This document shows positions 35,711 through 51,923 of a DNA stretch of 64,000 nucleotides, one piece after another. Source of the DNA: Pontiellaceae bacterium B12227 (lineage in GTDB: Bacteria > Verrucomicrobiota > Kiritimatiellia > Kiritimatiellales > Pontiellaceae); assembly GCA_029432775.1 (NCBI GenBank), contig JAROAZ010000025.1:1-64000 (forward strand), given 5' to 3'. Position numbers and translations under genes: made by a program. The notes beneath the pieces were generated by a model. That model worked only from the letters and a program-made list of their open reading frames with translations, searched no databases and was not told the DNA's origin. Within the stretch, counting starts at the first letter, position 1. The number at the start of each line of letters is the position of its first letter.

Positions 35711-36376
35711 TTAGCCGTCCCTTGGGAAGAGACCTGCCTTGTAGGCTTTGGAGATGGCGGCCGGGGCGTTCTGGACGTTGAGCTTTTCGTAGATGTGGCG
35801 GATGTGGGTCTCGACCGTTTTTGTGCTGATGTTGAGTTCGTCGGCGATTTCTTTCTGCATCTTCCCGTCTGCAATGCAGGTCAGGATTTCCAGTTGCCGG
35901 GGTGAGAGCAGCTCTTGTTCCGCTTTAGGGGTCGGCTGCTTTTTGTGATGGTTTATGAGATATTTAGCCATGGAGGGGTCGAGTGACGCGCCGCCGTTCA
36001 TCACCGTCCGAATACCTACCGTGATTTGATCCAAGGTCGATTCTTTGAGGAGGTAACCGCTTGCTCCTGAGTGGATCGCCGTCAACACATCAGCTTCACG
36101 GTCGGACTGGGTCAGGATAATGATTTCCGCATCGGGCACCGCCTCTTTAAACCAGGGAATCGCCTCGAGGCCGGGTGTTCCGGGAAGATTTAGGTCGAGC
36201 AGGATCAGATCGGGCACTTTTCTAGTCGATCGATCCTGCAGACTGCGCAGTGCGAAGTCGGCCGTGCCGAACTGGCTTTGGAGCTCGATGTCCGGTTCGT
36301 CGCTCAGGGTGAATGCCACGACATCCCGGAATTCAGGATTGTCTTCGACCAGCATGATTTTGATTTTTGTATTCAT
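35711..36376 (-). CDS. NarL/FixJ-family response regulator
   Basis: 221 aa. Receiver domain with VEDNPEF, D61 in LLDLNLPG, the switch Thr in ILTQSD and Lys in GYLLKES; LuxR-type HTH at about 148-210 (LSPRQLEILTCIADG, ISTKTVETHIRHIYEKL). It lies downstream of its probable partner kinase, separated by a 107-bp gap that holds a repeat. Its likely targets are the plus-strand genes starting at 38756, which are divergent from the kinase. Confidence 0.9.
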   Translation of the reverse strand: MNTKIKIMLVEDNPEFRDVVAFTLSDEPDIELQSQFGTADFALRSLQDRSTRKVPDLILLDLNLPGTPGLEAIPWFKEAVPDAEIIILTQSDREADVLTAIHSGASGYLLKESTLDQITVGIRTVMNGGASLDPSMAKYLINHHKKQPTPKAEQELLSPRQLEILTCIADGKMQKEIADELNISTKTVETHIRHIYEKLNVQNAPAAISKAYKAGLFPRDG

Positions 36377-36391
36377 GATTTTATACGCATT

Positions 36392-36468: not shown

Positions 36469-36483
36469 CTATTTGGTAGGGGA

Positions 36484-38469
36484 TCATCTAAAGACTCCAA
36501 ATATTTTTGTTTTGAGTTTCAGGGTAATGCAGGTTCCTCCCTCAGGCGGATTTTCTATTCCAAGTCTGGCGTGCAGCAGATGTGCCCGGCGTTTTAGGGA
36601 GTGGGGGATCTCGAGCACGCCTTGCCCGTTGTCGGCGATGATGAGGCGGATTTGCTTTGGGGAACCGATCATATGGGTGGTGATGCGCGTGGCGTGCGAA
36701 TGGCGGACGATATTAGTTAGGCATTCCTTGTAGAAAAGAAAGAGGTCGATGCGTTTGCGCGGCGAAAGCCGATGAATAAATTCTTCTCCCTCGAATACGA
36801 GGTCGTGTTCGGCATCGGCCAGAAGCCGTTCGGACGAGCGCTGCATTTCTTCCGTAAGGTCGGCGCACAGCTCTTTAGCTTCAAGTAGGTTGGCACAGTG
36901 ACGCGCGGCCTTGCCGCTGCGTTCGGTGAGCTGCCGGATCCGCTCGAGAATGCCGAGCAGGGTGTCGCGCGCATCCACTTTGTTTTTTGCCATATCGCCC
37001 AGCAGTCCGATGGCATGCAGGTTGGCACCGAGTTCGTCGTGAAGATTGGCGGCGATGCGTTCGCGGATATTCAAGACCGCGCGCATTTGAACGATCCAGC
37101 CGATGAGAATACTGATGATGATGCCGACGGCCAGCAGGGTCGCCAGCCAGGCCATGCGACGAATCGTGATCTGCTGATGTTCGTATCGTAGCTCCAACTC
37201 TGTTGTGATCAGGGGGCGCTCCCGTTCCAGGGTATGGCGGCGGGCCAGCTGCTTCATCCATTCGCGGATGGGAAGGATTTCTCCATAGTGGTTACTCCCA
37301 TCAGTGATGGCGTCATGTTTGAAACCATAATTTTTTGAACGCGGATAAACCGGTTTGACGCCCTGTGCTACATTGCGTCCATTTGAAATGATCTCAAGCT
37401 CGGCAAGGCCGAAGCTCCGGCGCTTATGTGCGCTCGTGTCGGCGGTTTGGTAAGGTTCGGGCACGGAAAGGCGGATATGGCGGCATCGCGTTTCAGGGAC
37501 ATGCCGAATGAGTATGGCTCCCGATTCATAGATGGATTTACGCCGATAATCCAGCAACGGAACGGCATCGGAAAAGTTGGGCTGGTTGGCACCTTCTATC
37601 ACAAGGTGGTAGGGAACTCCGTAATCACTGTCGCAGAGCTGCGGAACATATTCGCTCATATCCGCGCTGTGGAATCGGATTTCATCAACCGGGTAGGTAT
37701 TTCCGAGATCGAGTGTGAAGGAATACATTTTTTCTTCAGGAATAAAGGCCAGGTGAGGATTGCTGTCGGTTCCGGTGGACGCATCCATCAGGAAGGGGGT
37801 AAATCCATCCGTCAGAGTTTTCTTGTTGATTGCATCCACGCCCCAGCCTCTGCCTCCGACCTCGGAGGAAACTCGAACGGGTTGGTTGAGCGCGATATTG
37901 CGATCGCCGCTGAATACCATAATCTCCGAAAGACAGAATAAATAGTTTCCCTCCCGGATATCTGACGTGAGGCGGGTGGCTTTGATGCGCATCCATGCTG
38001 CCGTTTTGTCGCGAATGGGAATCACCAAGGGGGCCGTGCGCGGCAGGAGATGATCTTCAGGACCAAACTGGGCAACCACCTCGATTTCGGATCGGTCTTT
38101 GGTTCCGATAAGCACCTCAAACTTTTCGGGAAATCCGTCTGCCTGAATCCCTTTTTGTGCATCGTTCCAGAGCAGTGGAACCAACACGACTTGGTCAATG
38201 GGTGTGTTTTCGGGGAGATCGATTTCCACCCATTCAGGACGGTCGCGGCTCCCCTTTCTCGTTGAAATCCATCCTGCCGTGCCGGTTCCGGTGCGCGGAG
38301 TAAACTGAGCGAGCCCGGTGAGCTCCGCATCGATTTCGGCCAGGCGGGTTTTGAGTTCAAAGGTGGAGTATTCGCCATAATCAAGGTGGTTTGTGGTCGC
38401 AAAGGTTTCGGCGGGGCGATTGAGGGCCAGTGTCAGGGTCGCGATTAGAATACTCGGGAATCGGTACAT
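36484..38469 (-). CDS. Sensor histidine kinase with discoidin-like extracytoplasmic domains
   Basis: 661 aa. A signal peptide (PSILIATLTLALNRPAETFA) precedes two discoidin/F5-8C-like segments (about 75-195, WVEIDLPENTPIDQVVLVPL; about 195-355, IALNQPVRVSSEVGG). The LPIREWMKQL linker matches LPLREWIEGL of the kinase at 10025. One membrane helix (LATLLAVGIIISILIGWIV) leads to HisKA_3 with H477 in AANLHDELGANLH. The ATPase has NIVRHSHA and ADNGQG. Likely senses an extracellular glycan and phosphorylates the regulator encoded just downstream. It is a clear paralogue of the first kinase, but here the kinase gene comes first. Confidence 0.85.
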   Translation of the reverse strand: MYRFPSILIATLTLALNRPAETFATTNHLDYGEYSTFELKTRLAEIDAELTGLAQFTPRTGTGTAGWISTRKGSRDRPEWVEIDLPENTPIDQVVLVPLLWNDAQKGIQADGFPEKFEVLIGTKDRSEIEVVAQFGPEDHLLPRTAPLVIPIRDKTAAWMRIKATRLTSDIREGNYLFCLSEIMVFSGDRNIALNQPVRVSSEVGGRGWGVDAINKKTLTDGFTPFLMDASTGTDSNPHLAFIPEEKMYSFTLDLGNTYPVDEIRFHSADMSEYVPQLCDSDYGVPYHLVIEGANQPNFSDAVPLLDYRRKSIYESGAILIRHVPETRCRHIRLSVPEPYQTADTSAHKRRSFGLAELEIISNGRNVAQGVKPVYPRSKNYGFKHDAITDGSNHYGEILPIREWMKQLARRHTLERERPLITTELELRYEHQQITIRRMAWLATLLAVGIIISILIGWIVQMRAVLNIRERIAANLHDELGANLHAIGLLGDMAKNKVDARDTLLGILERIRQLTERSGKAARHCANLLEAKELCADLTEEMQRSSERLLADAEHDLVFEGEEFIHRLSPRKRIDLFLFYKECLTNIVRHSHATRITTHMIGSPKQIRLIIADNGQGVLEIPHSLKRRAHLLHARLGIENPPEGGTCITLKLKTKIFGVFR

Positions 38470-38755
38470 GTTGCTCTTGTATCAGAATAAGATCCTCCTT
38501 GTCATGGCAATGTTAAGTCGGATTCTCTGACCTATTCGTTCATCTATGAAATGGAACCGGAACGGCATCAGGGAAACACCTGATAGGCGTATTTGCTCAA
38601 TAAGGATACATTCCTTATGTGAGTCGAAAAGCAGGGGCACTTCTGATGAGCCTGTAAACTGAAGAAACCCAAGGAAATTATGCCGGGGCCGGGGCGGCTC
38701 ATGTGGCGGAGATCATCAATTTCCCAAAGATAGCAATAAGAGAAAGTCATTCATT
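38470..38755. other. Divergent control region with palindromic leader element
   Basis: 286 bp between the kinase (minus) and the first fusion gene (plus). It holds the palindrome at 38567-38584 and a second possible hairpin at about 38596-38624, plus an AGATAGCAATAAGA stretch just before the ATG that recurs before the gene at 45932. No supported gene. Confidence 0.5.
38564..38634 (+). promoter_or_regulatory. Paired-hairpin leader element, copy 1
   Basis: ATCAGG, GAAACA, CCTGAT forms a perfect 6-bp-arm palindrome inside a run that is identical for 23 nt to copy 2 at 49007. A second hairpin follows (TAAGG / CCTTA within CTCA / TGAG), then a conserved GAAAAGCAG. It could be an operator for the adjacent regulator or a structured RNA leader. 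It does not match any riboswitch class I can name. Confidence 0.45.
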
Positions 38756-41700
38756 ATGAAAAAAATATTCGGAATGGCCGGAATGGTTCTGGCTTTAGCA
38801 GTCGGCGCGCGTGCTGCAATGATTGGAGGCGATGTGATCGCGATCGACTTTGGTGCGATCGCACCGGCCGAAGCGAATTGGAACCAAATATCGACGTCGA
38901 CTCTTTCGATCAGTGATTTACAACGACTGTCTGATGGAGCCCTCACCGGTGTAGGCGTTACTGTGACTCTCACGGAAACGAATGGGGACTATGTAAACAA
39001 CGTTGCGCCTGGTGCCGGCCAGGGTTCAACCGATGCTTCTATTTATAACGATCACCTTGCTGCCAATAACCTAAGTGGTTCTGATTTGATCACGGTGACG
39101 TATGCCGGTCTGGATGACAGCCTGAGTTACACGCTTACTGGCGGAATGGCTCGCAGCGGTAATACGACTCCCTTCGAGCAGACGTACACGGTTGGGGGAA
39201 TTGATTATGATTATACAGGCACTTCAGGTGTTGATGCATACGCTGAATATACCGGTCTCTCCTCAAGTGGCGGCGTGCTGACATTTACCGTATCTGATTA
39301 CACGGATTCTGATCTCGCTTCAATTTCACAGATGAAACTGACTGCAGTTCAGGTGCTCCCGGACGGAGCCACCCTCAGTCTGGCACCGGGCGCGCTTTCG
39401 CTGGATCTGGTTGCTCCTGATACTGCGGTCGACGGCATCATTACAGCTTCCTATACCGCAGGGGCGGTGTCCTCGAACAACATTGAAATCATTTCGCTGG
39501 TGGCGGATGCCGGCTTCAGTGCCGTCGCAGCCAATCCCACCCTGGGGCCGGCCGACACCGAGGAAGAGTTTACGGTCACTTTCGATAATGCTGGAATCGG
39601 CCTGGAAATCGGGGAATCCACAAACTCCACACTGGTGGTTACCTGGACCGAAGCGGGATCTTCTGTGACGAATACCGAAAATATTGCGCTGGATCTCACC
39701 TATGATGAGGATACTGCCGATTTTTGGACCCTTGCGCTTGATTTTGGGAATGTCCCGCCTGCCAACCATTTTAACGATATTTCCGCCAACGGCAGCTACA
39801 GCTCGTTGGTGCGGCTCTCCGACGGAAGTTCGGTGACCGGGGTATCGGTGATCGTTGACGGGCCGTCGTTTTATGTGGACGGGCCCAACGACTCCCTGAC
39901 CGGGCTTGCGAGCGATTACGATGTTTCGAATGTGACCGACTGGGCCGGAGACAGTGATACATGGACCGTGATGTTCTATGGACTGGATGATTCAATGGCC
40001 TACAATATCGAGGGGGTGATCGGTGGGTTTACGAACAATGACCTTACGGATATGACCTATATGCAGGTCGGCTCGTTAACTGATATGTTTAATCCCGACA
40101 CGGCCTCTGCGGATCCGCGGATCGCCCGTATTGAAGGAGCCCAATCCTTCGGCGGTGTTCTGGAGATCTTCGTGGCTCCGAACTCGCAGTATCCCGTTTT
40201 GTCGACCCTGATGATTACCGCGGTGGAAGGCGGCAATACCACCAATGATGTGATTGCCGTGCCGAATATTGTGGAGATCACGGTAGGGAGCGAAAGTAAT
40301 GTGGTTTTGAGTCTGGAGCCTGTCGGAACCAATTATGTTGTGCAGCAGTCGGACGATCTCCAGCAGTTTTCCACGGTTGTTTTCGATGTCGAGGGCAGTG
40401 ATTCCGTGAGGGTTTCCGGCAGCGGTAACGTGGATGCTGACGGGGATGGCAGCGCCTTTTTCCGCCTGGAACGCCAGCCGAACTTTGTCATCATCTTCAC
40501 GGATGATCAGGGCTATCAGGATCTTGGGTGTTTCGGTTCACCCAATATCAAAACGCCGAATATCGACCAGATGGCGGCGGAGGGCATGAAGTTTACAAGC
40601 TTTTATGCCCAGACCGTTTGCGGACCGTCCCGCGCGTCAATCATGACAGGCTGCTATCCCATGCGGGTGGAGCGGCACGAAGATGATGACGGATCGATGG
40701 TGCATCCGGCGTTGTCTTTAAACGAAATCACAATTCCTGAAATACTCAAACCGCTCGGATATAAGACGGGAATGTCGGGCAAGTGGGATCTGTCCGGGCG
40801 CTCGCCCGCCGGAACCTATCGGATTGGGCTCGGCCCGCACAACCAGGGTTTTGAAGAGACGTTTTGGTCGCCCACGAGTGATGCGAATCCAATCTACGAA
40901 GCAGAGACCGATATCCTTAACAACCCGACCCGATCTTCTATTACCCGGCGGTTTTCGGATGACGCCATTCAGTTTATTCATGCCAATAAAGACCGTCCCT
41001 TTTTCTATTATCTTGCTCACCCGATGCCGCATACGCCGATCGCGGCTTCCGCAGACTTTTTGGGTACATCGGATGGCGGGCTCTATGGGGACGTCATTGA
41101 AGAACTGGACTATCATACCGGTCGCGTTCTGGATGCGGTAAAGGAGGCCGGGATCGATGAGCTCACGTATGTCATTTTCACGAGTGATAACGGCCCATGG
41201 TGGGTCAAGCTGCCCAATGCCGGATTCGCTGATCCGCTACGCAGTGCAAAAACCAGCGCCTATGACGGGGGCCTGCGCGTCCCGTTTATTATTCGCGCAC
41301 CGGGGCGGGTTCCTGCCGGAACCACCTCAGACCTGGTCTGCGCAAACCTGGATCTGTTTCCAACTATTGCCCGGCTGGCCGGGGCCGATGTTCCGGACGA
41401 CCGCGTGATCGACGGGGTCGATCTCTCGGATGTTTTCCACGGCACGCAAACCGAGCTGGATCGTCCGTTTTTCTTTTACCAGCATGAATCATTGCGGGCC
41501 GTACGCCGTGGGAAGTGGAAACTTCATCTCGTGCATTCCGCAGATGATCAGGACATGGTTGAAAATGATCCATGGGTCAATTGGCCAATCCACGTGCCCG
41601 AAGATGACCGCTCCTACATCGAGGAACTCACCCTCTACAACCTTGATGATGATATTGGCGAAACCACGAATGTGGCTTCGCAATATCCGGAAGTGGTGGC

Positions 41701-41779
41701 CGAGCTGCTGGAGGATCTAGACTTTGCCAAAGAGGATATCGGCTATCACGATGTCACCGGGGAGAATTCCCGCAGATAA
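38756..41779 (+). CDS. Modular exoprotein: duplicated N-terminal module fused to S1 sulfatase
   Basis: 1007 aa. Signal peptide (MKKIFGMAGMVLALAVGARA), module A (about 22-200; IDFG, RLSDG, YAGLDDSLSYTLTGG), a beta-sandwich linker (about 205-320), a second diverged copy of module A (about 323-500; LDFGNVPPANHFNDIS, RLSDG, YGLDDSMAYNIEG), then a short domain ending in AFFRLER that elsewhere marks a protein C-terminus. The sulfatase starts right after it (RQPNFVIIFTDDQ, about 575), with C622 in CGPSR and SGKWDLSGR. The sulfatase part closely matches that of the 30025 gene; the N-terminal part matches the 45932 gene. Confidence 0.88.
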   Translation: MKKIFGMAGMVLALAVGARAAMIGGDVIAIDFGAIAPAEANWNQISTSTLSISDLQRLSDGALTGVGVTVTLTETNGDYVNNVAPGAGQGSTDASIYNDHLAANNLSGSDLITVTYAGLDDSLSYTLTGGMARSGNTTPFEQTYTVGGIDYDYTGTSGVDAYAEYTGLSSSGGVLTFTVSDYTDSDLASISQMKLTAVQVLPDGATLSLAPGALSLDLVAPDTAVDGIITASYTAGAVSSNNIEIISLVADAGFSAVAANPTLGPADTEEEFTVTFDNAGIGLEIGESTNSTLVVTWTEAGSSVTNTENIALDLTYDEDTADFWTLALDFGNVPPANHFNDISANGSYSSLVRLSDGSSVTGVSVIVDGPSFYVDGPNDSLTGLASDYDVSNVTDWAGDSDTWTVMFYGLDDSMAYNIEGVIGGFTNNDLTDMTYMQVGSLTDMFNPDTASADPRIARIEGAQSFGGVLEIFVAPNSQYPVLSTLMITAVEGGNTTNDVIAVPNIVEITVGSESNVVLSLEPVGTNYVVQQSDDLQQFSTVVFDVEGSDSVRVSGSGNVDADGDGSAFFRLERQPNFVIIFTDDQGYQDLGCFGSPNIKTPNIDQMAAEGMKFTSFYAQTVCGPSRASIMTGCYPMRVERHEDDDGSMVHPALSLNEITIPEILKPLGYKTGMSGKWDLSGRSPAGTYRIGLGPHNQGFEETFWSPTSDANPIYEAETDILNNPTRSSITRRFSDDAIQFIHANKDRPFFYYLAHPMPHTPIAASADFLGTSDGGLYGDVIEELDYHTGRVLDAVKEAGIDELTYVIFTSDNGPWWVKLPNAGFADPLRSAKTSAYDGGLRVPFIIRAPGRVPAGTTSDLVCANLDLFPTIARLAGADVPDDRVIDGVDLSDVFHGTQTELDRPFFFYQHESLRAVRRGKWKLHLVHSADDQDMVENDPWVNWPIHVPEDDRSYIEELTLYNLDDDIGETTNVASQYPEVVAELLEDLDFAKEDIGYHDVTGENSRR

Positions 41780-43206
41780 TGATGAAACACAGAATACAAA
41801 TACTGATTGCCTTTGCGCTTGCTGCACTATGCTCATTCGCTGCCGAAGCGCCCAATATTATCTATATTTTAGCCGATGATATGGGCTTCGGTGATCTGGG
41901 CTGCTACGGGCAGGAGGTCATTCAGACGCCCCATATCGACAAGCTGTGCCGGGAGGGTATGAAGTTTACAAACCACCATTCCGGCAGTACGGTCTGTGCG
42001 CCGTCACGCGCCTGCCTGATGACCGGACAGCATACGGGCCATGTGTGGGTTCGTTCCAACGGAAAGGTGCAACTGCGTGCGGATGGTAAGGATATTACGA
42101 TTGCTCGGGTACTGAAGAACGAAGGCTATCACACGGCGATGATCGGAAAGGCTGGAACGGGTTGCACGGTATCGGCCGGCCAGCCTAACGAAAAAGGGTT
42201 TGATTATTTTTACGGATTCAACAGCCATGCCTTAGCACACCACTATTTCCCGAAGGTGGTTTATCGGAACGACAAAAAGATTCTTTTCCCGAACAATAAA
42301 AGGCACACGGGCGATACCTATATCCATGACGAGTTCATGAAAGAAATCCTGGGCTATCTGGATGCGCGCAAGAAGGACGGTCAGCCGTTCTTCCTTCACT
42401 ATGCCGCATTGATTCCGCATGCGACCATGGTTGCGCCCGAAGAGTGGATTGCGAAATACCGAGAAAAGGTGGACGAGGTTCCGCCGTTCAAGGGCGGGGG
42501 CGGTGGAGGCCGCAACGCACAGTATGGTCCGACCAAGGAGCCCAAGGCAACTTTTGCTGGGATGGTGAGCCGTCTCGACTGGGAGGTCGGTGAGATCCGT
42601 CGGAAACTGGAGGAACTGGGCCTGGCGGACAATACGCTGATTATGATTTCGTCCGATAACGGACCGCATAGTGAAGGCGGGCAATTGCCCGAATATTTTG
42701 GCTCCAATGGACCGCTGCGCGGCGGAAAACGCGATATGTTTGAGGGGGGCGTCCGGGTTCCGATGATTGCCTGGTGGCCGGGACATATTGCCGCCGGCAG
42801 CGAGTCGGATCATCTATCCGCTTTTTGGGATGTCATGCCGACCCTGTGCGAATTGACGGGGGCAAACGCGCCGGAAAATATCGACGGGCTCAGCTTTTTA
42901 CCAACCCTGCTGGAACAGAGCGGACAGGCGCAGCACGATTATCTCTACTGGGAGTTTTATGAACAGGGTGGCAGGCGTGCCGCATTGACCCAAAAGTGGA
43001 AAGCGGTGCAACTGAATGTGGGTAGTGGTGGTGATCCTATTATGCTGTTCGATATTCATGCGGATATCGGAGAGAAAAACAATGTGGCTGCCCAATATCC
43101 CGAGGTGGTCGATCTGTTTAGAGCCATCTTCAAAAAAGCGCATACGCCGTCCCCGAAGATTAAATGGTCTGCGGCAGGTAAGGGTAAACAGCAGCAGAAG
43201 AAGTAG
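41779..43206 (+). CDS. Exported S1 sulfatase, divergent GKW motif
   Basis: 475 aa, start overlapping the previous stop by one base (TAATG). Signal peptide IQILIAFALAALCSFAAEA; ILADDMGFGDLGCYG; C73 in CAPSR. The lysine motif reads IGKAGTGCT, so both Trp and His of GKWH are missing. This occurs with a TGQHTGH segment typical of one arylsulfatase branch, so it may be a subfamily trait rather than damage. MISSDNGPHSEGG is intact. The tail is Gln/Lys-rich (KGKQQQKK). Confidence 0.86.
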   Translation: MMKHRIQILIAFALAALCSFAAEAPNIIYILADDMGFGDLGCYGQEVIQTPHIDKLCREGMKFTNHHSGSTVCAPSRACLMTGQHTGHVWVRSNGKVQLRADGKDITIARVLKNEGYHTAMIGKAGTGCTVSAGQPNEKGFDYFYGFNSHALAHHYFPKVVYRNDKKILFPNNKRHTGDTYIHDEFMKEILGYLDARKKDGQPFFLHYAALIPHATMVAPEEWIAKYREKVDEVPPFKGGGGGGRNAQYGPTKEPKATFAGMVSRLDWEVGEIRRKLEELGLADNTLIMISSDNGPHSEGGQLPEYFGSNGPLRGGKRDMFEGGVRVPMIAWWPGHIAAGSESDHLSAFWDVMPTLCELTGANAPENIDGLSFLPTLLEQSGQAQHDYLYWEFYEQGGRRAALTQKWKAVQLNVGSGGDPIMLFDIHADIGEKNNVAAQYPEVVDLFRAIFKKAHTPSPKIKWSAAGKGKQQQKK

Positions 43207-43273
43207 AGTGGGGCAAAGCACAATGAGTCCGGAGAGGATAAGGTCTGATGTGAAAAGACGGTTGGGGATGAGT

Positions 43274-45862
43274 ATGGGAAAGTGGATAACGGGTTTGGCC
43301 GGAGCGTTTTTGTTATCATTAGCGATTCAGGCTGATGCGGTACAGACGCGTGCGACGGATGCCGAAGCGGTTATTGAAAATGAGCAGGTCCTGGTCCGGG
43401 TTTCGCTGAAAGCGGGAACGTATTCTGCCATTCGGAAAAAAGATCATATTGAATGTTTGTCGAACGTATCGTGGTCGGTTGAAGAGTGGAATTCTATCGA
43501 TGGCTATACCTTTACGTGGCAGAAGAAGGAGCTGTCGGATTCTTTAGGGAATGGAATAGCGCTTGAGGTGACAGGAACCAAAGCCGGTGCACCATCACTG
43601 ATTCTCCAACTGGGGCTCTACGAGGGGGAGGGGTTTATTACGGCCTGCAACGGTGTCGCAAACACATTGAATCAGCGATTGCAGATCAAAACGTTTTCAC
43701 CGCTGACCGGTACGGCCTATCAAGGTTCGGAGTTCGTGGACTTCATGCTTCTTGATGGTGAAAGCGGCGAATATAACAGCCGGGTTCTGACCGGAGATCA
43801 GGCAAAGGAACTTTCTTGCTTCAACAATGTTCTGGTCTCATTTGGAGAAAAAGGTTCTGAAAAAAACAATCTTTTGGTCGGCGGCTTGAGCTACCGCGAT
43901 TTTACGAAGCGTTGCGAGGTAAAAAGGCGGGCGGATAAGCTTGAGGTCAAACTCCGGGGAGATGATCCATATGGGAAACGGGTTGATCCCAACAGTACCT
44001 GTATTTTTGACAACGACCGGATGTATATCGATTTCACACCCGCATCACGTTTCGACATTCTTGAAAACTACGGTCTGGCCCTGAAAGCCGCGAACAACAT
44101 CAAGCTGGACACCTTAACCGCGCCAGGCCTGAACTTTTGGTATTGTATGTGGCGTGCATTCGGAGGCGATGAGTTTAGAAACACGTCTGCCGGAACGCTG
44201 GAGGCCCTTCAGAAGGCAAAGGATACCGGGTTTTTGAACTATGCTCCCCTGGCCATCCGGCTTGAACCGGACGATTATGCTGTTCCAAACAACCAGCAGG
44301 GTTGGTGGGATGACAAACACTGGCAAATGTATGAAGGCGGCAGGCTTGTAAAACCGTTCGATACCATTGAAACGTGGGGCAATGAAGTGCTCAGACAAGG
44401 TGGAATCCCCCTCATCTACTGCCAGACGGCACGCCGCTCTCTCGATTATGCAGAGGCTTTCCCCGGGCACATGTTGTTTAACGAGGTGAGTAAGGAACGC
44501 TCCAAGGGTAAGATTGACTATTACAAGGGGGACACTTTCTGGTCGTATGACTTTACGGATCCCGGTTTCGTCGAGCACATGCAGGAGGTCTACAGCAACC
44601 TCAAAAAAGGCGGGGTAAGGGGAATGAAGTTTGACTACCCGGACATCGGGTGGGCCTATGACGGGGGGATGGAAGATCCATACACGACCACAAGCAGCGC
44701 GTACCGTAGGATTTATGAATTAGCCCATGAAGGTTTGGGATGGAATTCCGACATCCATGAACGTTTGCCGCTGCACGGCGACATCGGTCTGGGAGCGGTC
44801 ACGACGCATCGAACAGAGCAGGATACGGATCGGTTCTACCCGGTCATGGCCAGAAAGTGCGGCCTGCGCTGGTACAAAAACCGGGTGGTCACCAAATATG
44901 TGAACGATGTGATTAATCCGTTCCATGCATTCCCTTACAACAGCGATGGTTGGCGGACGATGTATACGATGACCTACCTGACCAATGGACGCATTGAAAT
45001 CGGCAAATACATTGAGAAAATGACCGACGAGATGCGTTATGATCTGACCCGTATCATTCCGCTCTACACCGCGGAGCAGAGTGCGAAACCGATCGATGCC
45101 TTCAGCGGAAAAGAGTATCCGGAGATTTTTAACTTTGAAGTATCACCTTCCTGGCATCTGGTTGCGTTTTACAACACCCGGATCGAAAAAGACAAAAACA
45201 AAGTCAAAGCGCAATGGAACTCGATTCCGAGGGAGCCCCCAAACAAGAAATTAAAGAGAAAGCAGAAGCCGGCCCCGGCAACCGTATGGCCCGTAACCAA
45301 GAAGCTGGCAGGTGCGGCACAAACGCTTCCTGTTGCATCTACCATTACTGTTTCACTGGCGGACTCCATCGACGATGGCGGCCTTGGGCTTGATCCGGCA
45401 ACAGCGTATTATGTCTATGACTTCTGGAACGATGCATTCGTCGGCAAACTCTCCGGCCAGGCCACCCTCGAACAGACCCTCAGACCCGGTGAGACCCGTA
45501 TGATGTCCGTTCACGCCGTTCAGCCGAATCCCCAGTTCATTTCAACCGACCGCCATATTATGCAGGGGTATGTCGATTTTGAAAAAGTTCCGCAGTGGAA
45601 TGGAGAAAGCAACACCCTCTCTGCGACCTCGAAAGTAATCAAAGACGAAGCCTATACCGTGACCCTTGCGCTTAATGGGAAAGAGGTCGACCGCGTTTCA
45701 GCTTCCGGAGCCACAGCGAAGTTCAAGCTCGTGGATGAAAAGACGGGGATGGGTAAACTGACCCTGCTTGCGAAGGAGAACGGCGCTGTTGAATGGACCG
45801 TGCATTTCAAGCGGGGAAGTAGAAACATAAACGGATCAACGGTTGTTCCGGACGCTCAATGA
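43274..45862 (+). CDS. Exported clan GH-D-like glycoside hydrolase
   Basis: 862 aa from ATG 43274 with GGGGA upstream and a signal peptide (WITGLAGAFLLSLAIQADA); the frame is open upstream into the previous gene but that part is not supported. An N-terminal beta-sandwich (about 30-300) is followed by a TIM-barrel-like region (LNFWYCMWRAFGG, GGIPLIYCQTARR, GGVRGMKFDYPDIGW) whose Asp in KFDY would fit the nucleophile of GH27/GH36-type alpha-galactosidases. The rest is beta-rich and Lys/Pro-rich near 660. The family call is tentative; a GH31-like or unclassified hydrolase is possible. Confidence 0.55.
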   Translation: MGKWITGLAGAFLLSLAIQADAVQTRATDAEAVIENEQVLVRVSLKAGTYSAIRKKDHIECLSNVSWSVEEWNSIDGYTFTWQKKELSDSLGNGIALEVTGTKAGAPSLILQLGLYEGEGFITACNGVANTLNQRLQIKTFSPLTGTAYQGSEFVDFMLLDGESGEYNSRVLTGDQAKELSCFNNVLVSFGEKGSEKNNLLVGGLSYRDFTKRCEVKRRADKLEVKLRGDDPYGKRVDPNSTCIFDNDRMYIDFTPASRFDILENYGLALKAANNIKLDTLTAPGLNFWYCMWRAFGGDEFRNTSAGTLEALQKAKDTGFLNYAPLAIRLEPDDYAVPNNQQGWWDDKHWQMYEGGRLVKPFDTIETWGNEVLRQGGIPLIYCQTARRSLDYAEAFPGHMLFNEVSKERSKGKIDYYKGDTFWSYDFTDPGFVEHMQEVYSNLKKGGVRGMKFDYPDIGWAYDGGMEDPYTTTSSAYRRIYELAHEGLGWNSDIHERLPLHGDIGLGAVTTHRTEQDTDRFYPVMARKCGLRWYKNRVVTKYVNDVINPFHAFPYNSDGWRTMYTMTYLTNGRIEIGKYIEKMTDEMRYDLTRIIPLYTAEQSAKPIDAFSGKEYPEIFNFEVSPSWHLVAFYNTRIEKDKNKVKAQWNSIPREPPNKKLKRKQKPAPATVWPVTKKLAGAAQTLPVASTITVSLADSIDDGGLGLDPATAYYVYDFWNDAFVGKLSGQATLEQTLRPGETRMMSVHAVQPNPQFISTDRHIMQGYVDFEKVPQWNGESNTLSATSKVIKDEAYTVTLALNGKEVDRVSASGATAKFKLVDEKTGMGKLTLLAKENGAVEWTVHFKRGSRNINGSTVVPDAQ

Positions 45863-45931
45863 AAGCGTATGCCCTAACCGGCTTTGTCTTGGCAGGAACC
45901 GCAAAATAGCAATAAGAAGAGGTAACTCATT

Positions 45932-48900
45932 ATGAAAAAAACAGTAGGAATGGCTGGAATGATACTGGCTTTAGCCGTCGGTGCGCGTGCTGCAATTATT
46001 GTCGGCGATGTTGTCGCGATTGACTTTGGTGCGACAGCACCGGCCGTGGCGAATTGGAACCAAATATCAACATCGACTCTTTCAATCGGTGATTTGCAAA
46101 GATTGTCTGATGGTAACCCCACGGGGGTAGGCGTTACTGTTACTCTCACTGGAACGAATGGTGACTATATAAACAACGCTGCTCCTGGCGACCCCGGTTT
46201 AGGTTCAACTGATGCTTCTATTTATAACGATCACCTTGCTGCCAATAACCTAACTGGTCCTGATTTGATCACGGTTACTTATACTGGTCTGGATGACAGC
46301 CTAAGTTACACGCTTACAGGTGGAATGGCTCGTAGTGGTGGCACGACTGCATTCGAGCAGACGTACTGGGTGGGGGGAGTTGAGTATGATTATACAGGTG
46401 CTTCAGGTGTTGATGCATACGCTGAATATACCGGTCTCACCTCAAGTGGCGGAGTACTGACATTTACCGTATCTGATTATACGGACACTGATCTCGCTTC
46501 AATTTCGCAGATGACACTGACTGCAGTTGGGGAGCTCCAGGCTACCCTCAGTCTGGCGCCAAGTGAGCTCTCGTTGGATCTGGTTGCTCCTGATACCACG
46601 GTCGACGGTATCATTACAGTTTCTTATATCGCAGGAGCGGCTTCTTTGAACGATATTGAAATACTTACGTATACGGCGGATGCCGGCTTCAGTGCCGCCA
46701 TAACCAATACCACTATGGGGCTGGTCGATACCGAGGAAGATATTACGGTTACCTTTGATAACTCCGGCATCGGCCTTGCCAACGGGGAATCAACAAATTC
46801 TACGCTTGAGGTCACCTGGACTGAGGCAGGCTCCTCCGTGACAAATGCCGAAACTTTTACGCTGGATGTTACCTATGATGAGGATCTTGCCAAATTCTGG
46901 ACCATTGCCCTGGATTTCGGTGATACCCCGCCCGCCAACCATTTTAATGATATTTCCGCCAACGGCACGTACAGTTCGCCGGAGCGGCTCTCCGATGGAC
47001 ACTCGGTGACCGGGATCTCCGTGAAGGTGACCGGCGCGTCGTTCTACAAGAGTGATGGCCCCAATGATTCCCTTGCCGGGCTTTCCGCCGATTATGATCT
47101 GTCCAATGTGACCGACTGGGCCGGGGACACCGATACCTGGACCGTGATGTTCTATGGACTGGATGATTCGCTGGTTTACGACATCGAAGGGGTGATCGGC
47201 GGCTTCACGAACAATGCAAATACCGATACGACATTCCTTCAGGCGGGAACACGGACGAACATGTTCAACCCCGTTACGGCCTCTGCGGATCCCCGGATCG
47301 CCCGTATTGAAGGAGCCCGGTCCCACGGTGGTGTTCTGGAAATCGCCGCGAAGCCGGGGTCGAAGGTGCCCGTCCTGTCGACCCTGATGGTTACAGCGGT
47401 GGAAGGAAGCACCAATGACGTGATCGTTGTGCCGAACATTGTGGACATTACGGTGGGGAGCGAAAGTAATGTGGCCTTGAACCTGGAGCACGCCGGGACG
47501 AATTATGTGGTACAGCAGTCGGATGATCTGCAGCGGTTTTCCGCGGTCGATTTTGAGGTTGAAGGTGTCGGCAATGAAACCGTACGACTCTCCGGAAGCG
47601 GGAACGTGGATCCCGACGGGGATGGAAGCTCATTTTTCCGCCTGAACCGCCAGCCGAACTTCATCATTGTTTTTGCCGATGATCAGGGGTATCAGGATCT
47701 CGGTTGCTTCGGATCGCCGGATATTCTGACGCCGCGAATTGATACCATGGCGAGTGAAGGAATGCGTTTCACCGGGTTTTATGCGCAGACCGTCTGCGGA
47801 CCGTCGCGGGATTCACTTATGACCGGCTGCTATCCATTGCGAACGGCAACGCCTGATGCCAGATCCGTCGTACATTGCCGACTGGCTCACACCGAAGTGA
47901 CCCTTGCAGAGATTCTCAAGGAGGTCGGGTATACGACCGCTGTTTTTGGTAAATGGGATTTGGGCGGCCACTCCCAGACCACGTATGACCCGGACTATCT
48001 CCCGCTCGCCCAGGGCTTCGATTATTTTCTGGGCACCTCCGGGAGCAATGACGGGACGGTAAATATCATCGAAAACACGACCCGTATTGAAACAGGCGCC
48101 GACATGAGCCAGTTGACGAAGCGCTATACCGATGCGGCCATCGCGTTTATTCAAAACAATAAGGAACGACCGTTCTTCGTCTATCTGGCCCATACGATGC
48201 CCCATGTGGATCTGGCGGTTTCCGACGACTTCGAGGGCACGTCGGCGGGCGGGCTCTACGGCGACGTGATCGAGGAGCTCGACTGGAACGTCGGCCGTAT
48301 CCTCGATACGCTGGTCGCGGAAGGTCTCGACTCGAACACCTACGTGATCTACATGAGCGACAACGGGCCGTGGTATCTGGGGAACAGCAGCTCGCACGTC
48401 AGCGAGTATGGCGGCGTTGCCGAAGCGGAGGCCATGGGCGGGTCGGCCCTGCCGCTGCGCGGCGACAAGGTTACGAGCTGGGAGGGCGGGTTCCGCGTTC
48501 CCTGCGTCATGCGCGCGCCCGGACGGATTCCCGCCGGAACGATGTGTGATGAAATCATCTCCACTCAGGACATTATGCCGTCCCTCGCAAAACTGGCCGG
48601 GGCGACTGTTCCGTCCGACCGTGTGATCGACGGTGTTGATATTACCCCTCTGATGCACGGAGTTCCCGGGGCCGCAACTTCAAGGGAAGCCTTCTTCTAT
48701 TATGTCCGGAATGACCTCCATGCGGTTCGAGTCGGGAAGTGGAAACTGCACGTAGCCCGGGATGCCGACTCCACCTGGGCGAAGTATTACCGGGATGGGG
48801 ACTTGTTCGATATTCCCTCGCCGCTGCTCTTTGACCTCGATGCCGATATCGGGGAAACGAACGATGTCGCTGCCGCCAACCCGTCCGTCGTCAGCAACCT

Positions 48901-48970
48901 GCTCGAATACATTGAATTAGCCCGGGCCGACATCGGTGATGGAGCCCTGATCGGGGAGAATGCGCGATGA
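45932..48970 (+). CDS. Modular exoprotein: duplicated N-terminal module fused to a second sulfatase type
   Basis: 1012 aa. Signal peptide MKKTVGMAGMILALAVGARA; module A, beta-sandwich linker, second module A (LDFGDTPPANHFNDIS), FFRL domain, then sulfatase from about 575 (RQPNFIIVFADDQ). Formylglycine precursor C622 in CGPSR falls at the same residue number as in the 38756 protein. GKWH reads FGKWDLGGH. The sulfatase half resembles the 23544 protein, not the 38756 one, so the same 570-residue front has been joined to two sulfatase clades. The short upstream gap repeats the AAATAGCAATAAGA leader of 38756. Confidence 0.88.
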   Translation: MKKTVGMAGMILALAVGARAAIIVGDVVAIDFGATAPAVANWNQISTSTLSIGDLQRLSDGNPTGVGVTVTLTGTNGDYINNAAPGDPGLGSTDASIYNDHLAANNLTGPDLITVTYTGLDDSLSYTLTGGMARSGGTTAFEQTYWVGGVEYDYTGASGVDAYAEYTGLTSSGGVLTFTVSDYTDTDLASISQMTLTAVGELQATLSLAPSELSLDLVAPDTTVDGIITVSYIAGAASLNDIEILTYTADAGFSAAITNTTMGLVDTEEDITVTFDNSGIGLANGESTNSTLEVTWTEAGSSVTNAETFTLDVTYDEDLAKFWTIALDFGDTPPANHFNDISANGTYSSPERLSDGHSVTGISVKVTGASFYKSDGPNDSLAGLSADYDLSNVTDWAGDTDTWTVMFYGLDDSLVYDIEGVIGGFTNNANTDTTFLQAGTRTNMFNPVTASADPRIARIEGARSHGGVLEIAAKPGSKVPVLSTLMVTAVEGSTNDVIVVPNIVDITVGSESNVALNLEHAGTNYVVQQSDDLQRFSAVDFEVEGVGNETVRLSGSGNVDPDGDGSSFFRLNRQPNFIIVFADDQGYQDLGCFGSPDILTPRIDTMASEGMRFTGFYAQTVCGPSRDSLMTGCYPLRTATPDARSVVHCRLAHTEVTLAEILKEVGYTTAVFGKWDLGGHSQTTYDPDYLPLAQGFDYFLGTSGSNDGTVNIIENTTRIETGADMSQLTKRYTDAAIAFIQNNKERPFFVYLAHTMPHVDLAVSDDFEGTSAGGLYGDVIEELDWNVGRILDTLVAEGLDSNTYVIYMSDNGPWYLGNSSSHVSEYGGVAEAEAMGGSALPLRGDKVTSWEGGFRVPCVMRAPGRIPAGTMCDEIISTQDIMPSLAKLAGATVPSDRVIDGVDITPLMHGVPGAATSREAFFYYVRNDLHAVRVGKWKLHVARDADSTWAKYYRDGDLFDIPSPLLFDLDADIGETNDVAAANPSVVSNLLEYIELARADIGDGALIGENAR

Positions 48971-49005
48971 AGCCGATTGGAACGGATTGAGTCAAATAGT
49001 CTCCA

Positions 49006-49076
49006 GGCATCAGGGAAACACCTGATAGACGGATTTTTCCAAAAGGGTAAATTAGCCCTATGTTTCGGAAAAGCAG
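49006..49076 (+). promoter_or_regulatory. Paired-hairpin leader element, copy 2
   Basis: ATCAGG, GAAACA, CCTGAT at 49009-49026, inside the 23-nt identity with copy 1. A second hairpin with a different sequence follows (AGGG / CCCT within TTTTCC / GGAAAA), then GAAAAGCAG. It lies 41 nt before ATG 49117. Confidence 0.45.
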
Positions 49077-49116
49077 CAATGCTTTGAGTGTATACATAGA
49101 CAGGAGAAAGGGAGAT

Positions 49117-51135
49117 ATGATGAAAAAAACAGTAGGAATGGCCGGAATGGTTCTGGCGTTGGCAGTCGGCGCACATGCTGCAATTATTGAAGGCGATGCT
49201 ATCGCGATTGACTTTGGTGCAACAGCACCGGCCGTGGCGAATTGGAACCAGATATCGACATCGACTCTTTCAATCGCTGATTTAAAACGATTGTCTGATG
49301 GTAACCTCACGGGGGTAGGCGTGACTGTTACGCTCACTTCCCCTAATGGTGACTATATAAAAAACGCTGCTCCGAGCGCCGGTTTGGGTTCAACAGATGC
49401 TTCTATTTATGACGATCATCTTGCTGCCAACAGTACGGGTGCTTCGGGTGTAAATGATTTGATCACGGTGACGTATACCGGACTGGATGATAGTCTGAGT
49501 TACACGCTTACAGGCGGAATGGCTCGTATTCTTGGTCCTGCTGGATTCGAGCAGACGTACACGGTGGGGGGAATTGCTTATGATTATACAGATAGTTCAG
49601 GTGTTGATGCATACGCTGAATATACCGGTCTTTCCTCAAGTGGCGGAGTGCTGACATTCACCGTATCTGATTACACGGATTCTGATCTCGCTTCAATTTC
49701 GCAGATGACACTGACTGCAGTGCCACCACCCGGTTCGCCCTCGCTCGAGCTGGCACCGACATCGATCTCGCTCGATCTGATTGCTCCAGATGCCACGGTC
49801 GAAGACATCATTACGGCTTCTTATATCGCAGGAGCGTCTTCCTCGAGCGATATTGAAATTCTTACGTATACCGCGGATGCCGGCTTCAGTGCAGCCATAA
49901 CCAATACCACCCTCGGTCTATCCAATACAGAGGAAGATATTACGGTTACTTTTGATAACGCGGGTATTGGTCTTGCAAACGGCGAATCCACGAACTCCAC
50001 GCTGGTGGTCACCTGGTCTGAAATAGGTGTAAGTACGGTCACCACCTCTAGTATTCCGCTGGATGTCACCTACATCAATGTGCCGAGCAGCCTTGAGTTG
50101 AATCCGGACTCGATATCACTGACGCTGCTGAATCCTGACACAAGTGCCAACGCCACGATGGTAGCATCGTTCGTTGAGGGCACGCTCTCGAGCGACGTTG
50201 AGGTTCTTTCGATCACGTCGACGAATGGCAACTTCTCAGTCGATGACGAGACCTTTATCCTGGATACCGTCGTCACGAGTTGGGACGTCACGGTCACTTA
50301 CACCAACACGGGCACCTTGGTCAACACCGGGGATACAGACGCATCCACGCTGGTAATTGCATGGACTGAAGATGGTTCCGGTGTAATTAATACCTCGGAA
50401 GTGCCGGTGGATGTCAACTATGTCAAGGGCGATGTCGTTGACGTGACAGTCGGCGCAACCTACTTCGAAGTCTCAGCGAGCGACAAGCGGATCGCCACCA
50501 CCGTGATCCGATTTGGCGCAAATAATGGTGAAACTTTTTCGTATGTCGGTCTGATGATGTTCGACCTCAGTGCATATACTCTAGAAGAACTTCAGAGTTC
50601 AGCCTATGCACTCCAGTTTGAACTGGGTGTCCAGGACAACACTCCTCCTCCTGCCGACTTAACGATCGAATATGTCGGCACTTTCGCCTCCACTAATCTG
50701 GGAGTAGCCGGCGTCAATGGTGCAAATGCAAACGCGACGAACATTGCAAATTCTGCAACGGTCTACAGCATATTCAGCGGTGCGGAAACTGCAGGGGCCA
50801 AATCCTATGATGCGACTGTGATCCAGGGTGATAGCTTCGACAACCAGTATGCGGTATTTCGTCTCACGAAAACATTTGAACCGAACCAATGGGATATTCC
50901 CATTGGAACGGCTACGCTGATTGTCAGCACAACACAGGTGGAAATCGGCGACGTAACCATGGGGATTTCCGGCAGCGATGTGGTGCTGTCCTGGGAAGGC
51001 GACTTTACCTGCGACGTGGAAACCAACGCCAACCTTGTGCACCCGAATTGGGGTGTCTTGGAGTCGGATGCAACCTCGCCGGCAACCAACGCCATCAGCA
51101 GCGAAGCGCAACTGTTCTACAGGCTCAGCAAATAA
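49117..51135 (+). CDS. Modular exoprotein with CBM96-like domain, no enzyme
   Basis: 672 aa from ATG 49117 behind AGGAG/GGGAG; ATG 49120 is also possible. Signal peptide MKKTVGMAGMVLALAVGAHA, module A (about 23-205), two beta-sandwich repeats (about 208-320 and 322-440; each SLxLxPxSISLxLxxPD), then a CBM96/DNRLRE-like jelly-roll (about 445-610; YFEVSASDKRIATTVIRF, GLMMFDLS) and a C-terminal cap ending in LFYRLSK. The CBM96-like part also occurs at the start of the GH116 protein at 52179. Probably a secreted glycan-binding protein. Confidence 0.75.
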   Translation: MMKKTVGMAGMVLALAVGAHAAIIEGDAIAIDFGATAPAVANWNQISTSTLSIADLKRLSDGNLTGVGVTVTLTSPNGDYIKNAAPSAGLGSTDASIYDDHLAANSTGASGVNDLITVTYTGLDDSLSYTLTGGMARILGPAGFEQTYTVGGIAYDYTDSSGVDAYAEYTGLSSSGGVLTFTVSDYTDSDLASISQMTLTAVPPPGSPSLELAPTSISLDLIAPDATVEDIITASYIAGASSSSDIEILTYTADAGFSAAITNTTLGLSNTEEDITVTFDNAGIGLANGESTNSTLVVTWSEIGVSTVTTSSIPLDVTYINVPSSLELNPDSISLTLLNPDTSANATMVASFVEGTLSSDVEVLSITSTNGNFSVDDETFILDTVVTSWDVTVTYTNTGTLVNTGDTDASTLVIAWTEDGSGVINTSEVPVDVNYVKGDVVDVTVGATYFEVSASDKRIATTVIRFGANNGETFSYVGLMMFDLSAYTLEELQSSAYALQFELGVQDNTPPPADLTIEYVGTFASTNLGVAGVNGANANATNIANSATVYSIFSGAETAGAKSYDATVIQGDSFDNQYAVFRLTKTFEPNQWDIPIGTATLIVSTTQVEIGDVTMGISGSDVVLSWEGDFTCDVETNANLVHPNWGVLESDATSPATNAISSEAQLFYRLSK

Positions 51136-51163
51136 ACGATCTAACGATAAATGCACAAAATAT

Positions 51164-51187
51164 CGGGGAAGTCATTGGGCTTCCCCG
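51164..51187 (+). other. Hairpin between exoprotein genes
   Basis: CGGGGAAG / CTTCCCCG with an 8-nt loop, in the 72-bp gap between the 49117 and 51208 genes. No T-run follows, so it is more likely an mRNA-stabilising or attenuating hairpin than a full terminator. Confidence 0.45.
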
Positions 51188-51207
51188 GATAAAATAAGGA
51201 GAAATAA

Positions 51208-51900
51208 ATGAAGAAAATTATAGGAACGGCCGGAATAGTTCTGGCTTTGGCCGTCGGCGCGCAAGCTGATATTGTTGAAGGCGATGTTATCGCAGTTGAC
51301 TTTGGTTCGGTTGCACCGACCGTAGCGAATTGGAACCAATTATCGACATCGTCTCTTACCATCGCAGATGCGATAAGACTGTCTGATGGGGCGGGCACCG
51401 GTGTAGGCGTTGCTATGACTCTTACTGCACAGAATGCCGACGCTACTAACAACACTGAACCCACCGACACCAGTTTGGGGTCAGACGATGTGTCTATTTA
51501 TCTCGATCACAGTGCTGCCAACAGTACGGGTGGTTCGGGTGTAAATGATTTGATCACGGTTACCTATACTGGTCTCGATGATAGCCTGACTTACACGCTG
51601 ACAGGCGGAATGGCTCGTGCTGGTAATGGCTCGGCAGCATGGCAGCAGGTTTACACGGTGGGGGGAATTGATTATGAATATACGCTAGTAGGTGGTGATA
51701 CTGTTGATGCATACGCTGAATATACCGGTCTCTCCTCAGTTGGCGGAGTTCTGTCATTCACCGTATCTGATTACGAAGATTCTGGTCTCGCTTCAATTTC
51801 GCAGATGTCGCTGGAAGCTATTCCGGAACCGGGTACATTGGGACTGGTTGCTGCATTCGGAGGAGCGGTTCTGTTTATCCGCCGTCGCTTGATGGTGTAA
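51208..51900 (+). CDS. PEP-CTERM protein with module A
   Basis: 230 aa. ATG preceded by AAGGAG. Signal peptide (GTAGIVLALAVGAQA), one module A (about 22-200; VDFGSVAPTVANWNQLS, RLSDGAGTGVGV, YTGLDDSLTYTLTGG), then a C-terminal PEP-CTERM sorting signal: IPEPGTLGL, a hydrophobic segment, and RRR. PEP-CTERM proteins are processed by an exosortase (not in the window) and exported to the envelope or extracellular matrix. It is the simplest of the four module A proteins and may show the ancestral arrangement. A strong terminator follows. Confidence 0.85.
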   Translation: MKKIIGTAGIVLALAVGAQADIVEGDVIAVDFGSVAPTVANWNQLSTSSLTIADAIRLSDGAGTGVGVAMTLTAQNADATNNTEPTDTSLGSDDVSIYLDHSAANSTGGSGVNDLITVTYTGLDDSLTYTLTGGMARAGNGSAAWQQVYTVGGIDYEYTLVGGDTVDAYAEYTGLSSVGGVLSFTVSDYEDSGLASISQMSLEAIPEPGTLGLVAAFGGAVLFIRRRLMV

Positions 51901-51923
51901 GCATTCATTTTCCGAATGGATAA

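What the first reader, a model, noticed from the sequence alone, without database searches (positions are those of the whole stretch)
38756..51900. Domain-shuffled exoprotein family: one N-terminal module, four different outputs
Four proteins (38756, 45932, 49117, 51208) share an about 180-residue module A after nearly identical signal peptides. It is followed by a GKWD sulfatase of one clade, a sulfatase of another clade, a CBM96-like domain, or a PEP-CTERM anchor. Module A is strongly conserved at the DNA level (for example the stretch encoding GVDAYAEYTGL and the following TFTVSDY), while the C-terminal parts differ. In both sulfatase fusions the formylglycine Cys is residue 622. This looks like recent duplication plus module exchange that produces sulfatases with a common targeting or binding front end. 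I know no named family for module A.
Basis: partly seen in the sequence, partly recalled or inferred. Interest (0 to 1): 0.78.

Follow-up and report, generated by a model that had tools for sequence, protein, structure and literature searches.

The report
Shuffled binding module on secreted sulfatases
A marine bacterium carries a cluster of sulfate-removing enzymes in which one previously unnamed, sugar-binding-like protein module has been copied by recombination onto the fronts of several different secreted proteins, perhaps to target them to the same place.

Summary
Four secreted proteins (S1 38756, S2 45932, C3 49117, P4 51208) share a signal peptide and a ~185-residue module A. S1 and S2 also share an Ig-like repeat B, a second, diverged module copy A' and a linker. 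Identity steps down at module borders (residues ~205, ~320, ~573). Their sulfatases are not sisters.

Outside relatives give polarity: S2's counterpart in G003 and S1's in MAG JB023 keep A'-linker-sulfatase but have another first module and no B. So the A+B front is a recent replacement; a C3-like gene is the likeliest donor. In A, 10 informative sites support orthology and 14 conflict; in the sulfatase, 374 and 7.

Module A matched no Pfam, NCBIfam or PDB sequence family. Its predicted structure (pLDDT 90) is a beta-sandwich resembling carbohydrate-binding modules. Single-module PEP-CTERM relatives lie just upstream of a sulfatase in 11 of 29 cases, mostly close relatives.

Likely role, inferred: glycan-binding front end targeting the sulfatases, with P4 as the surface-held copy. 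A new unnamed family of a known kind. A conserved dyad upstream of S1 and C3, beside a two-component system, is a side finding.

The parts
38756..41779 (+). S1: signal peptide - A - B - A' - linker - sulfatase, 1007 aa
   Evidence: ORF; Pfam Sulfatase residues 575-877; domains
38819..39370 (+). module A of S1 (residues 22-205)
   Evidence: profile match; structure
39371..39706 (+). B repeat of S1 (Ig-like by eye, residues ~206-317)
   Evidence: phmmer E 2.8e-37 with B1 of C3
39710..40240 (+). A': second, diverged module copy in S1 (residues 319-495)
   Evidence: profile match 152 bits
40475..41776 (+). sulfatase domain of S1; FGly Cys622 at 40619-40621
45932..48970 (+). S2: same front architecture, sulfatase of a different clade, 1012 aa; FGly Cys622
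45992..46543 (+). module A of S2
46883..47416 (+). A' of S2
49117..51135 (+). C3: A - B1 - B2 - X domain - tail, 672 aa, no enzyme domain found
49180..49737 (+). module A of C3
50428..50952 (+). X domain of C3, homologous to the N-terminal domain of the GH116-type protein 52158-55217
51208..51900 (+). P4: single module A plus PEP-CTERM tail, 230 aa
41779..43206 (+). sulfatase without module A inside the same gene run
35711..36376 (-). LuxR/NarL-type response regulator, divergent from S1
   Evidence: found beside some other module-A genes
36484..38469 (-). histidine kinase with discoidin-like N-terminal part (its Pfam matches are all below cut-off)
38567..38584 (+). inverted-repeat element upstream of S1 (ATCAGG-GAAACA-CCTGAT)
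49009..49026 (+). the same inverted-repeat element upstream of C3
51922..51945 (+). terminator-like site with a 10-pair stem just after P4: likely end of the gene run
   Evidence: consensus scan: 23 terminator-like sites found, 11.5 expected; this one has the longest stem

Best explanation
Module A is a non-catalytic beta-sandwich domain of the carbohydrate-binding-module type, belonging to an unnamed family in Verrucomicrobiota/Kiritimatiellota. In this lineage one version of it (A, or A plus B) was spread by recombination among neighbouring genes of a sulfatase gene run, replacing the older front ends of two sulfatases of different clades and also heading a protein without a recognised enzyme domain (C3) and a PEP-CTERM protein (P4). 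Proposed working: all four are exported; module A binds the same glycan, either the sulfated substrate or the cell's own exopolymer; P4 is held at the surface by the exosortase pathway and the sulfatases are concentrated at the same place. Shown by computation: the shared module, the replaced front (firmest for S2), the predicted fold class, and sulfatase linkage for close relatives. Inferred: glycan binding, co-localisation, exosortase processing, the donor gene.
For: Replacement: S2 and S2x against the G003 counterpart are 34-42% aa over residues 1-320, then 74-97% in every bin from 321 on. S1 and S1x against the JB023 counterpart are 36-51% over A, B is absent, then 60-100% from 321 on. Grouping S2's and S2x's A with the G003 A is rejected (AU p 0.0006). 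Quartet sites, orthology against conflicting: A 10 and 14, B 20 and 9, A'+linker 80 and 10, sulfatase 374 and 7. Sulfatases not sisters: S1's domain is 73% and 58% identical to two window sulfatases without module A but 53% to S2's. Donor: B of S1/S2 matches B1 of C3 far better than B2. Fold: AF2 pLDDT 89.7, pTM 0.87; 18 of the 50 listed Foldseek PDB rows are CBMs by title (CBM6, 22, 32, 35, 36, 61); a phage tail-fibre protein reaches TMq 0.71. Linkage: 11 of 21 single-module PEP-CTERM genes have a same-strand sulfatase within 1 kb downstream, 0.21 expected; 4 of the 11 are module-A fusions. Control in two genomes within 2 kb: 3 of 5 against 1 of 108 other PEP-CTERM genes, p 1.7e-4. Exosortase present.
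Against: No binding assay, and no binding site was mapped. The best TM-score to PDB is 0.47-0.48, so 'CBM-like' is a fold-class statement; the top row is YxiM, the next an arabinanase, and 8 of the 50 rows are Cry toxins. A second sample of 8 further PEP-CTERM-tailed module proteins showed 0 sulfatases downstream, so the total is 11 of 29. Trees of module A do not reject plain orthology of S1/S1x or S2/S2x (AU 0.405, 0.197 protein; 0.156, 0.167 DNA), nor S1+S2 (0.077) nor P4 with the JB single-module copies (0.057); S1+S1x+S1jb is not rejected either (0.454; S1jb is a long branch), so for S1 the replacement rests on the identity profile. The full-length S1 model was poor (pLDDT 58). Module A also occurs on proteins with cytochrome-c, PKD/LamG or, by eye, dehydrogenase-like parts (L046), so it is not sulfatase-specific.
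Confidence: 0.6

Rival explanations
1. Module A is a protein-protein or assembly module: the enzyme-borne and C3 copies dock onto (or stack with) the exosortase-anchored single-module protein, building a surface-held sulfatase array; sugar binding is secondary or absent.
For: Fused sulfatases share a locus with a single-module PEP-CTERM protein in 6 of 9 loci that hold fusions (window, L029, L031 with L036 on a second contig, L032, L034, L039; not L033, L042, L050; a borderline 11-bit match in L041 was left out). Modules occur in tandem (A-A') within one protein. Amino-acid identity to the JB023 single-module copy is 66-76% although third codon positions agree at only 0.38-0.41, so the module is under constraint.
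Against: Many of the solved structures that resemble the fold are sugar-binding modules (18 of 50 listed rows). Single-module proteins also occur with no sulfatase downstream.
Confidence: 0.2
2. Plain tandem duplication of one ancestral A-B-A'-sulfatase gene, followed by faster divergence of the sulfatase domain; no exchange.
For: S1 and S2 are collinear and linked; trees of module A alone cannot reject orthology.
Against: S1's sulfatase is nearer to two sulfatases without module A than to S2's. Outside counterparts of both genes lack B and carry other first modules, with a sharp break at residue ~320. Between counterparts in different genomes the sulfatase is more conserved than A', yet between S1 and S2 it is far more diverged.
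Confidence: 0.08
3. Module A is a passive spacer or export/stability domain whose sequence is kept similar mainly by ongoing gene conversion.
For: Mosaic sites in A; no binding residues identified.
Against: 66-76% aa identity to the JB023 copy with third positions at 0.38-0.41, and 66-81% to the JB025 copy with third positions at 0.58-0.64, point to purifying selection as well as homogenisation.
Confidence: 0.1
4. Assembly artefact: repeat-induced chimeras of one gene.
For: G021's contigs break inside module A with an exact 91-base overlap, so the repeat does trouble assemblers.
Against: Independent assemblies G000 and G021 give the same order S1, S2, C3 with orthologue-level divergence along S1 and S2, and the four window copies differ at 21-30% of third positions.
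Confidence: 0.02

Closest known systems
Carbohydrate-binding modules of the beta-sandwich type (CBM6/22/32/35/36/61) attached to secreted polysaccharide-active enzymes
   Same: Predicted nearly all-beta; Foldseek E 7e-4 to 5e-3 to members of these families; appended to secreted enzymes
   Different: No sequence match in Pfam, NCBIfam or PDB; TM only up to 0.48; binding untested; CAZy/dbCAN was not available here
PEP-CTERM / exosortase-sorted surface proteins
   Same: P4 and its relatives are short proteins with a signal peptide and a PEP...hydrophobic...RRR tail; exosortase in the genome
   Different: None of the 9 relatives scanned reaches the cut-off of a named NCBIfam PEP-CTERM protein family; the module also occurs without the tail, fused to enzymes
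Type I (FGly) sulfatases of the S1 superfamily, clustered in Kiritimatiellales genomes
   Same: C-x-P-S-R motif at Cys622, Pfam Sulfatase 180 and 195 bits; rows of sulfatases and nearby two-component systems are described for Pontiella agarivorans (PMC10880615, passages), several hundred sulfatases for the Black Sea strains (PMC6388578, passages)
   Different: The A-B-A'-linker front is not mentioned in the passages of those papers that I saw
Concerted evolution / gene conversion between linked prokaryotic paralogues
   Same: Paralogue similarity equal to orthologue similarity in one part of the gene; reported as rare but long-lasting in prokaryotes (PMC6053082, start of abstract in the listing)
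   Different: Here it is confined to one module and crosses between genes with unrelated C-termini

Membership tests
FGly sulfatase (S1) | C/S-x-P/A-x-R sulfatase motif and Pfam Sulfatase domain | tested here: met
   CGPSR at Cys622 in S1 and S2; Pfam 180.1 and 195.2 bits, cut-off 25
FGly sulfatase (S1) | sulfate-ester hydrolysis | not testable with these tools
   needs an enzyme assay
PEP-CTERM protein (P4) | C-terminal PEP motif, hydrophobic stretch, basic end above curated cut-off | tested here: inconclusive
   18.4 bits against 20.7 and 15.3 against 16; of 9 single-module relatives scanned, 6 reach TIGR02595's 16 bits (16.0 to 23.6), 1 has 15.8 and 2 no match
PEP-CTERM protein (P4) | exosortase in the genome | tested here: met
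   PF09721 at 177 bits, one match
Carbohydrate-binding module (module A) | sequence membership of a described Pfam/NCBIfam family | tested here: not met
   0 Pfam families for S1's A at E up to 1, no family matched by more than 2 of 31 members; no NCBIfam match in that part of the proteins. CAZy itself not tested
Carbohydrate-binding module (module A) | beta-sandwich fold | tested here: met
   AF2 pLDDT 89.7, nearly all beta; 18 of 50 listed PDB rows are CBMs, TM up to 0.48
Carbohydrate-binding module (module A) | measured glycan binding | not testable with these tools
   needs affinity electrophoresis or ITC
CBM96 / DNRLRE (X domain of C3) | match to a described family | tested here: not met
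   no Pfam or NCBIfam match for C3; the CBM96/DNRLRE likeness is recollection only
Concerted evolution of paralogues | paralogues within a genome as similar as or more similar than orthologues | tested here: inconclusive
   codon-3 identity of A: S1-S2 0.78, S1-S1x 0.77, S2-S2x 0.78, S2-S1x 0.85; star-like DNA tree, orthology not rejected

The most novel reading that the evidence does not exclude
Module A is the common currency of an exosortase-based surface sulfatase system: a short anchored copy (P4) plus interchangeable enzyme-borne copies, kept mutually compatible by gene conversion within the gene run and controlled as one regulon by the adjacent two-component system through the conserved dyad. 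In effect a plug-in scaffold that lets the cell refit new sulfatases with the same address tag.
Probability: 0.15. Interest if true: 0.75.

Novelty: new variant of a known kind. Interest (0 to 1): 0.5.

Why it matters
Pontiella isolates encode about 500 sulfatases each (521 and 480, PMC7356697 passage), and I saw nothing on how each reaches its substrate. An unnamed module family that exists alone as a probable surface protein, often sits beside sulfatases in close relatives, and is swapped onto sulfatases of different clades gives a concrete handle: one domain to express, bind and delete. It also gives a natural example, with polarity, of front-end replacement between neighbouring bacterial genes.

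Tried and rejected
Plain duplication: disfavoured by the sulfatase tree and the outside relatives. The idea that the S1/S2 identity break lies inside the sulfatase (first impression, drop after residue 634): rejected, because residues 574-634 are also conserved in related sulfatases without module A. Rejection of orthology by trees of module A: tried with protein and DNA, not obtained, so I rest on quartet sites, identity profiles and the one AU rejection with G003. Sequence kinship with phage tail fibres: fold similarity only; no tblastn match at E up to 0.1 in 50,697 phage records, three weak PHROG matches in 31 members. Rfam: 0 matches at gathering threshold in 35500-52500. Sulfatase adjacency as a general rule: rejected by a second sample, 0 of 8. 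Full-length S1 structure: too poor to use. A wider dyad regulon: 8 matches in 10 genomes, 6 upstream of module-A genes, the 2 others inside ORFs, against 4 matches of the reversed control pattern; no wider regulon seen in those 10.

In print: searches listed no paper that I recognised as describing module A or these fusions. Papers were seen as listings only, except PMC6388578, PMC10880615 and PMC7356697, of which I saw passages; I read no paper whole and no supplements.
Full report
WHAT IS THERE. The window is bases 1-64000 of contig C124 of genome G000 (6.3 Mb). By the same reasoning G260 is MAG JB023 (contig of 22301 bases); JB025 is G406. The genome is sulfatase-rich: 150 of 270 first-look candidates were scored and gave 150 matches, those listed all over the Pfam cut-off. 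The window holds 13 sulfatase ORFs. The finding is a run of six co-directional genes from 38756 to 51900: S1, a sulfatase without module A (41779), an 882-aa protein of unknown family, S2, C3 and P4. A two-component pair lies divergent upstream (35711-38469), and a terminator-like site with a 10-pair stem follows P4 (51922-51945).

ANATOMY. C3: A, B1, B2, X domain, tail. P4: A plus PEP-CTERM tail. Both sulfatases have CGPSR at Cys622. The best-scoring solved sulfatases by sequence are arylsulfatase A for S1 and steryl-sulfatase for S2; the substrate cannot be read from that.

WHERE IDENTITY BREAKS. Third-codon-position identity S1/S2: 0.76-0.80 in A, 0.67 in B, 0.60-0.64 in A'+linker, 0.45-0.50 at 574-634, 0.27-0.47 beyond. 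S1/S1x and S2/S2x are 0.67-0.87 over the bins from residue 22 on. Residues 574-634 are also conserved in the two related sulfatases without module A, so the border is ~573. Quartet sites (S1, S2, S1x, S2x), orthology: crossed: within-genome: residues 1-205 10:9:5; 206-320 20:7:2; 321-573 80:5:5; 574-1007 374:3:4. The signal is a staircase with steps near module borders, not an even decay.

POLARITY. In G003 the S2-type gene (L033 4759-7512) and in MAG JB023 the S1-type gene (L039 6591-9698) have A'-linker-sulfatase matching their namesake, but a different first module (34-42% and 36-51% identical) and no B (neither is among the B matches). The first A of S2 and S2x cannot be grouped with that of the G003 gene (AU p 0.0006); S1+S1x+S1jb was not rejected (p 0.454). 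B in S2 and S1 matches B1 of C3 (E 7e-45, 3e-37) much better than B2 (3e-12, 1e-13). The simplest history: an older A'-linker unit joined to two sulfatase clades; then, before G000 and G021 split, an A+B front from a C3-like neighbour replaced the fronts of S1 and S2; exchange among the A copies may have continued (S2 with S1x: bootstrap 97 in the protein tree, 77 in the DNA tree, where orthology is not rejected). The sulfatase tree of 51 domains (quick method) places S1 with the sulfatases at 30010 (which has an SGNH-like front), 23523 and L048_6760, apart from S2. Module A is fused to sulfatases in several parts of that tree; in one case (L033_11096) the close counterparts in the window (32048) and G021 have no module.

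THE FAMILY. A 190-position profile finds 32 copies in the first loci. Genome scans: 5 of 29 genomes in the family group with the single sequence; 21 of 387 in the phylum sample; 16 of 285 in the class of G260, overlapping the former. In the two profile scans only the best 8 or 11 candidates per genome were scored, so copies are undercounted. No Pfam, NCBIfam or PDB sequence match. AF2 from 22 sequences: pLDDT 89.7, pTM 0.87, nearly all beta. Foldseek against PDB: YxiM first (E 5e-5, TM 0.47), then an arabinanase; of the 50 listed rows 18 are CBMs by title and 8 Cry toxins. In BFVD, six of the seven best rows reach TMq 0.62-0.71, the named one a Vibrio phage tail-fibre protein; no sequence similarity to phages was found.

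COMPANY. The commonest form among the loci fetched is a single module plus PEP-CTERM tail. In the first set, 11 of 21 had a same-strand sulfatase within 1 kb downstream, 0.21 expected from first-look sulfatase counts per genome (the density for JB025 was assumed, clustering of sulfatases was not modelled, relatives are not independent, and 4 of the 11 sulfatases are themselves fusions). In G260 and G144, 3 of 5 module-A PEP-CTERM genes against 1 of 108 others have a sulfatase within 2 kb (p 1.7e-4; within 1 kb 2 of 5 against 1 of 108, p 0.005); the one other shows no module A. A second sample of eight single-module genes, mostly more distant, gave 0 of 8. Total 11 of 29: 8 of 11 copies scoring 100 bits or more, 3 of 18 below that (the second sample was scored with a slightly wider profile). 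A homologous histidine kinase/response regulator pair lies near the module gene in 6 of 32 distinct module-bearing sources (window, L029, L031, L039, L041, L049).

DYAD. ATCAGG-GAAACA-CCTGAT lies upstream of S1 and C3, the only two places in the genome within 2 mismatches, and upstream of their G021 orthologues. JB023 and JB025 have CTAGG-AAAAC(G/A)-CCTAG between the divergent kinase gene and the single-module gene. The outer two pairs of the arms differ between the groups and stay complementary. As RNA it folds as a small hairpin (z -2.7, -2.9, -2.3, -0.9), but it is equally readable as an operator of the neighbouring regulator; which one is not decided.

FUNCTION. Shown by computation: the shared, recombinationally spread module and its predicted fold class. 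Inferred: it binds a glycan and brings S1, S2 and C3 to where P4 is anchored. Two Pontiella isolates grow on sulfated polysaccharides and themselves make sulfated glycosaminoglycan-like exopolymer (PMC7356697, abstract and passages), so the bound glycan could be food or the cell's own coat.

VERDICT. Real module shuffling, well supported for S2 and probable for S1, with a previously unnamed CBM-like domain family; a new variant of a known kind.

Noticed in passing
window 38567-38584 and 49009-49026; L031 5621, 18100; L039 5784; L041 5810: Conserved inverted repeat with complementary changes in its arms and an AAAC core, upstream of module-A genes; in four of the six places beside a divergent two-component system; candidate operator or RNA hairpin.
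   Followed up: partly
window 30010-32031: SGNH-hydrolase-like N-terminus (by eye) fused to an S1-type sulfatase (73% identical to S1's domain); its last ~110 residues are 83% aa and 0.73 codon-3 identical to S1, far above residues 701-800 (52% aa), suggesting a second local exchange.
   Followed up: partly
L033 11096-13141 against window 32048-33442 and L031 1-1248: Closely related sulfatases, one with a module-A front and two without: recent gain or loss of the module.
   Followed up: partly
L029 1478-8990: Module A heads a 1209-aa protein with beta-propeller and di-haem cytochrome-c peroxidase parts, next to a protein with a hydrazine-synthase-alpha-like middle domain.
   Followed up: no
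G021 contig ends (L031 end, L036 start): The contigs break inside module A with an exact 91-base overlap, so C3x/P4x of G021 are unresolved; possibly a very recent exchange there.
   Followed up: partly
window 43214-45862: 882-aa protein with a signal-peptide-like start in the same gene run, with no Pfam match at E up to 0.1 or PDB match at E up to 0.01; by eye glycoside-hydrolase-like.
   Followed up: partly
window 52158-60595: Three consecutive large proteins; the first is GH116-type with the same N-terminal X domain as C3; the second reads alike by eye, the third was not read.
   Followed up: no
PDB 9s8x: A 1263-residue solved 'Sulfatase' whose match to S1 begins near residue 516, so it has a long front of its own; no sequence match to module A, but it could be compared by fold.
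   Followed up: no
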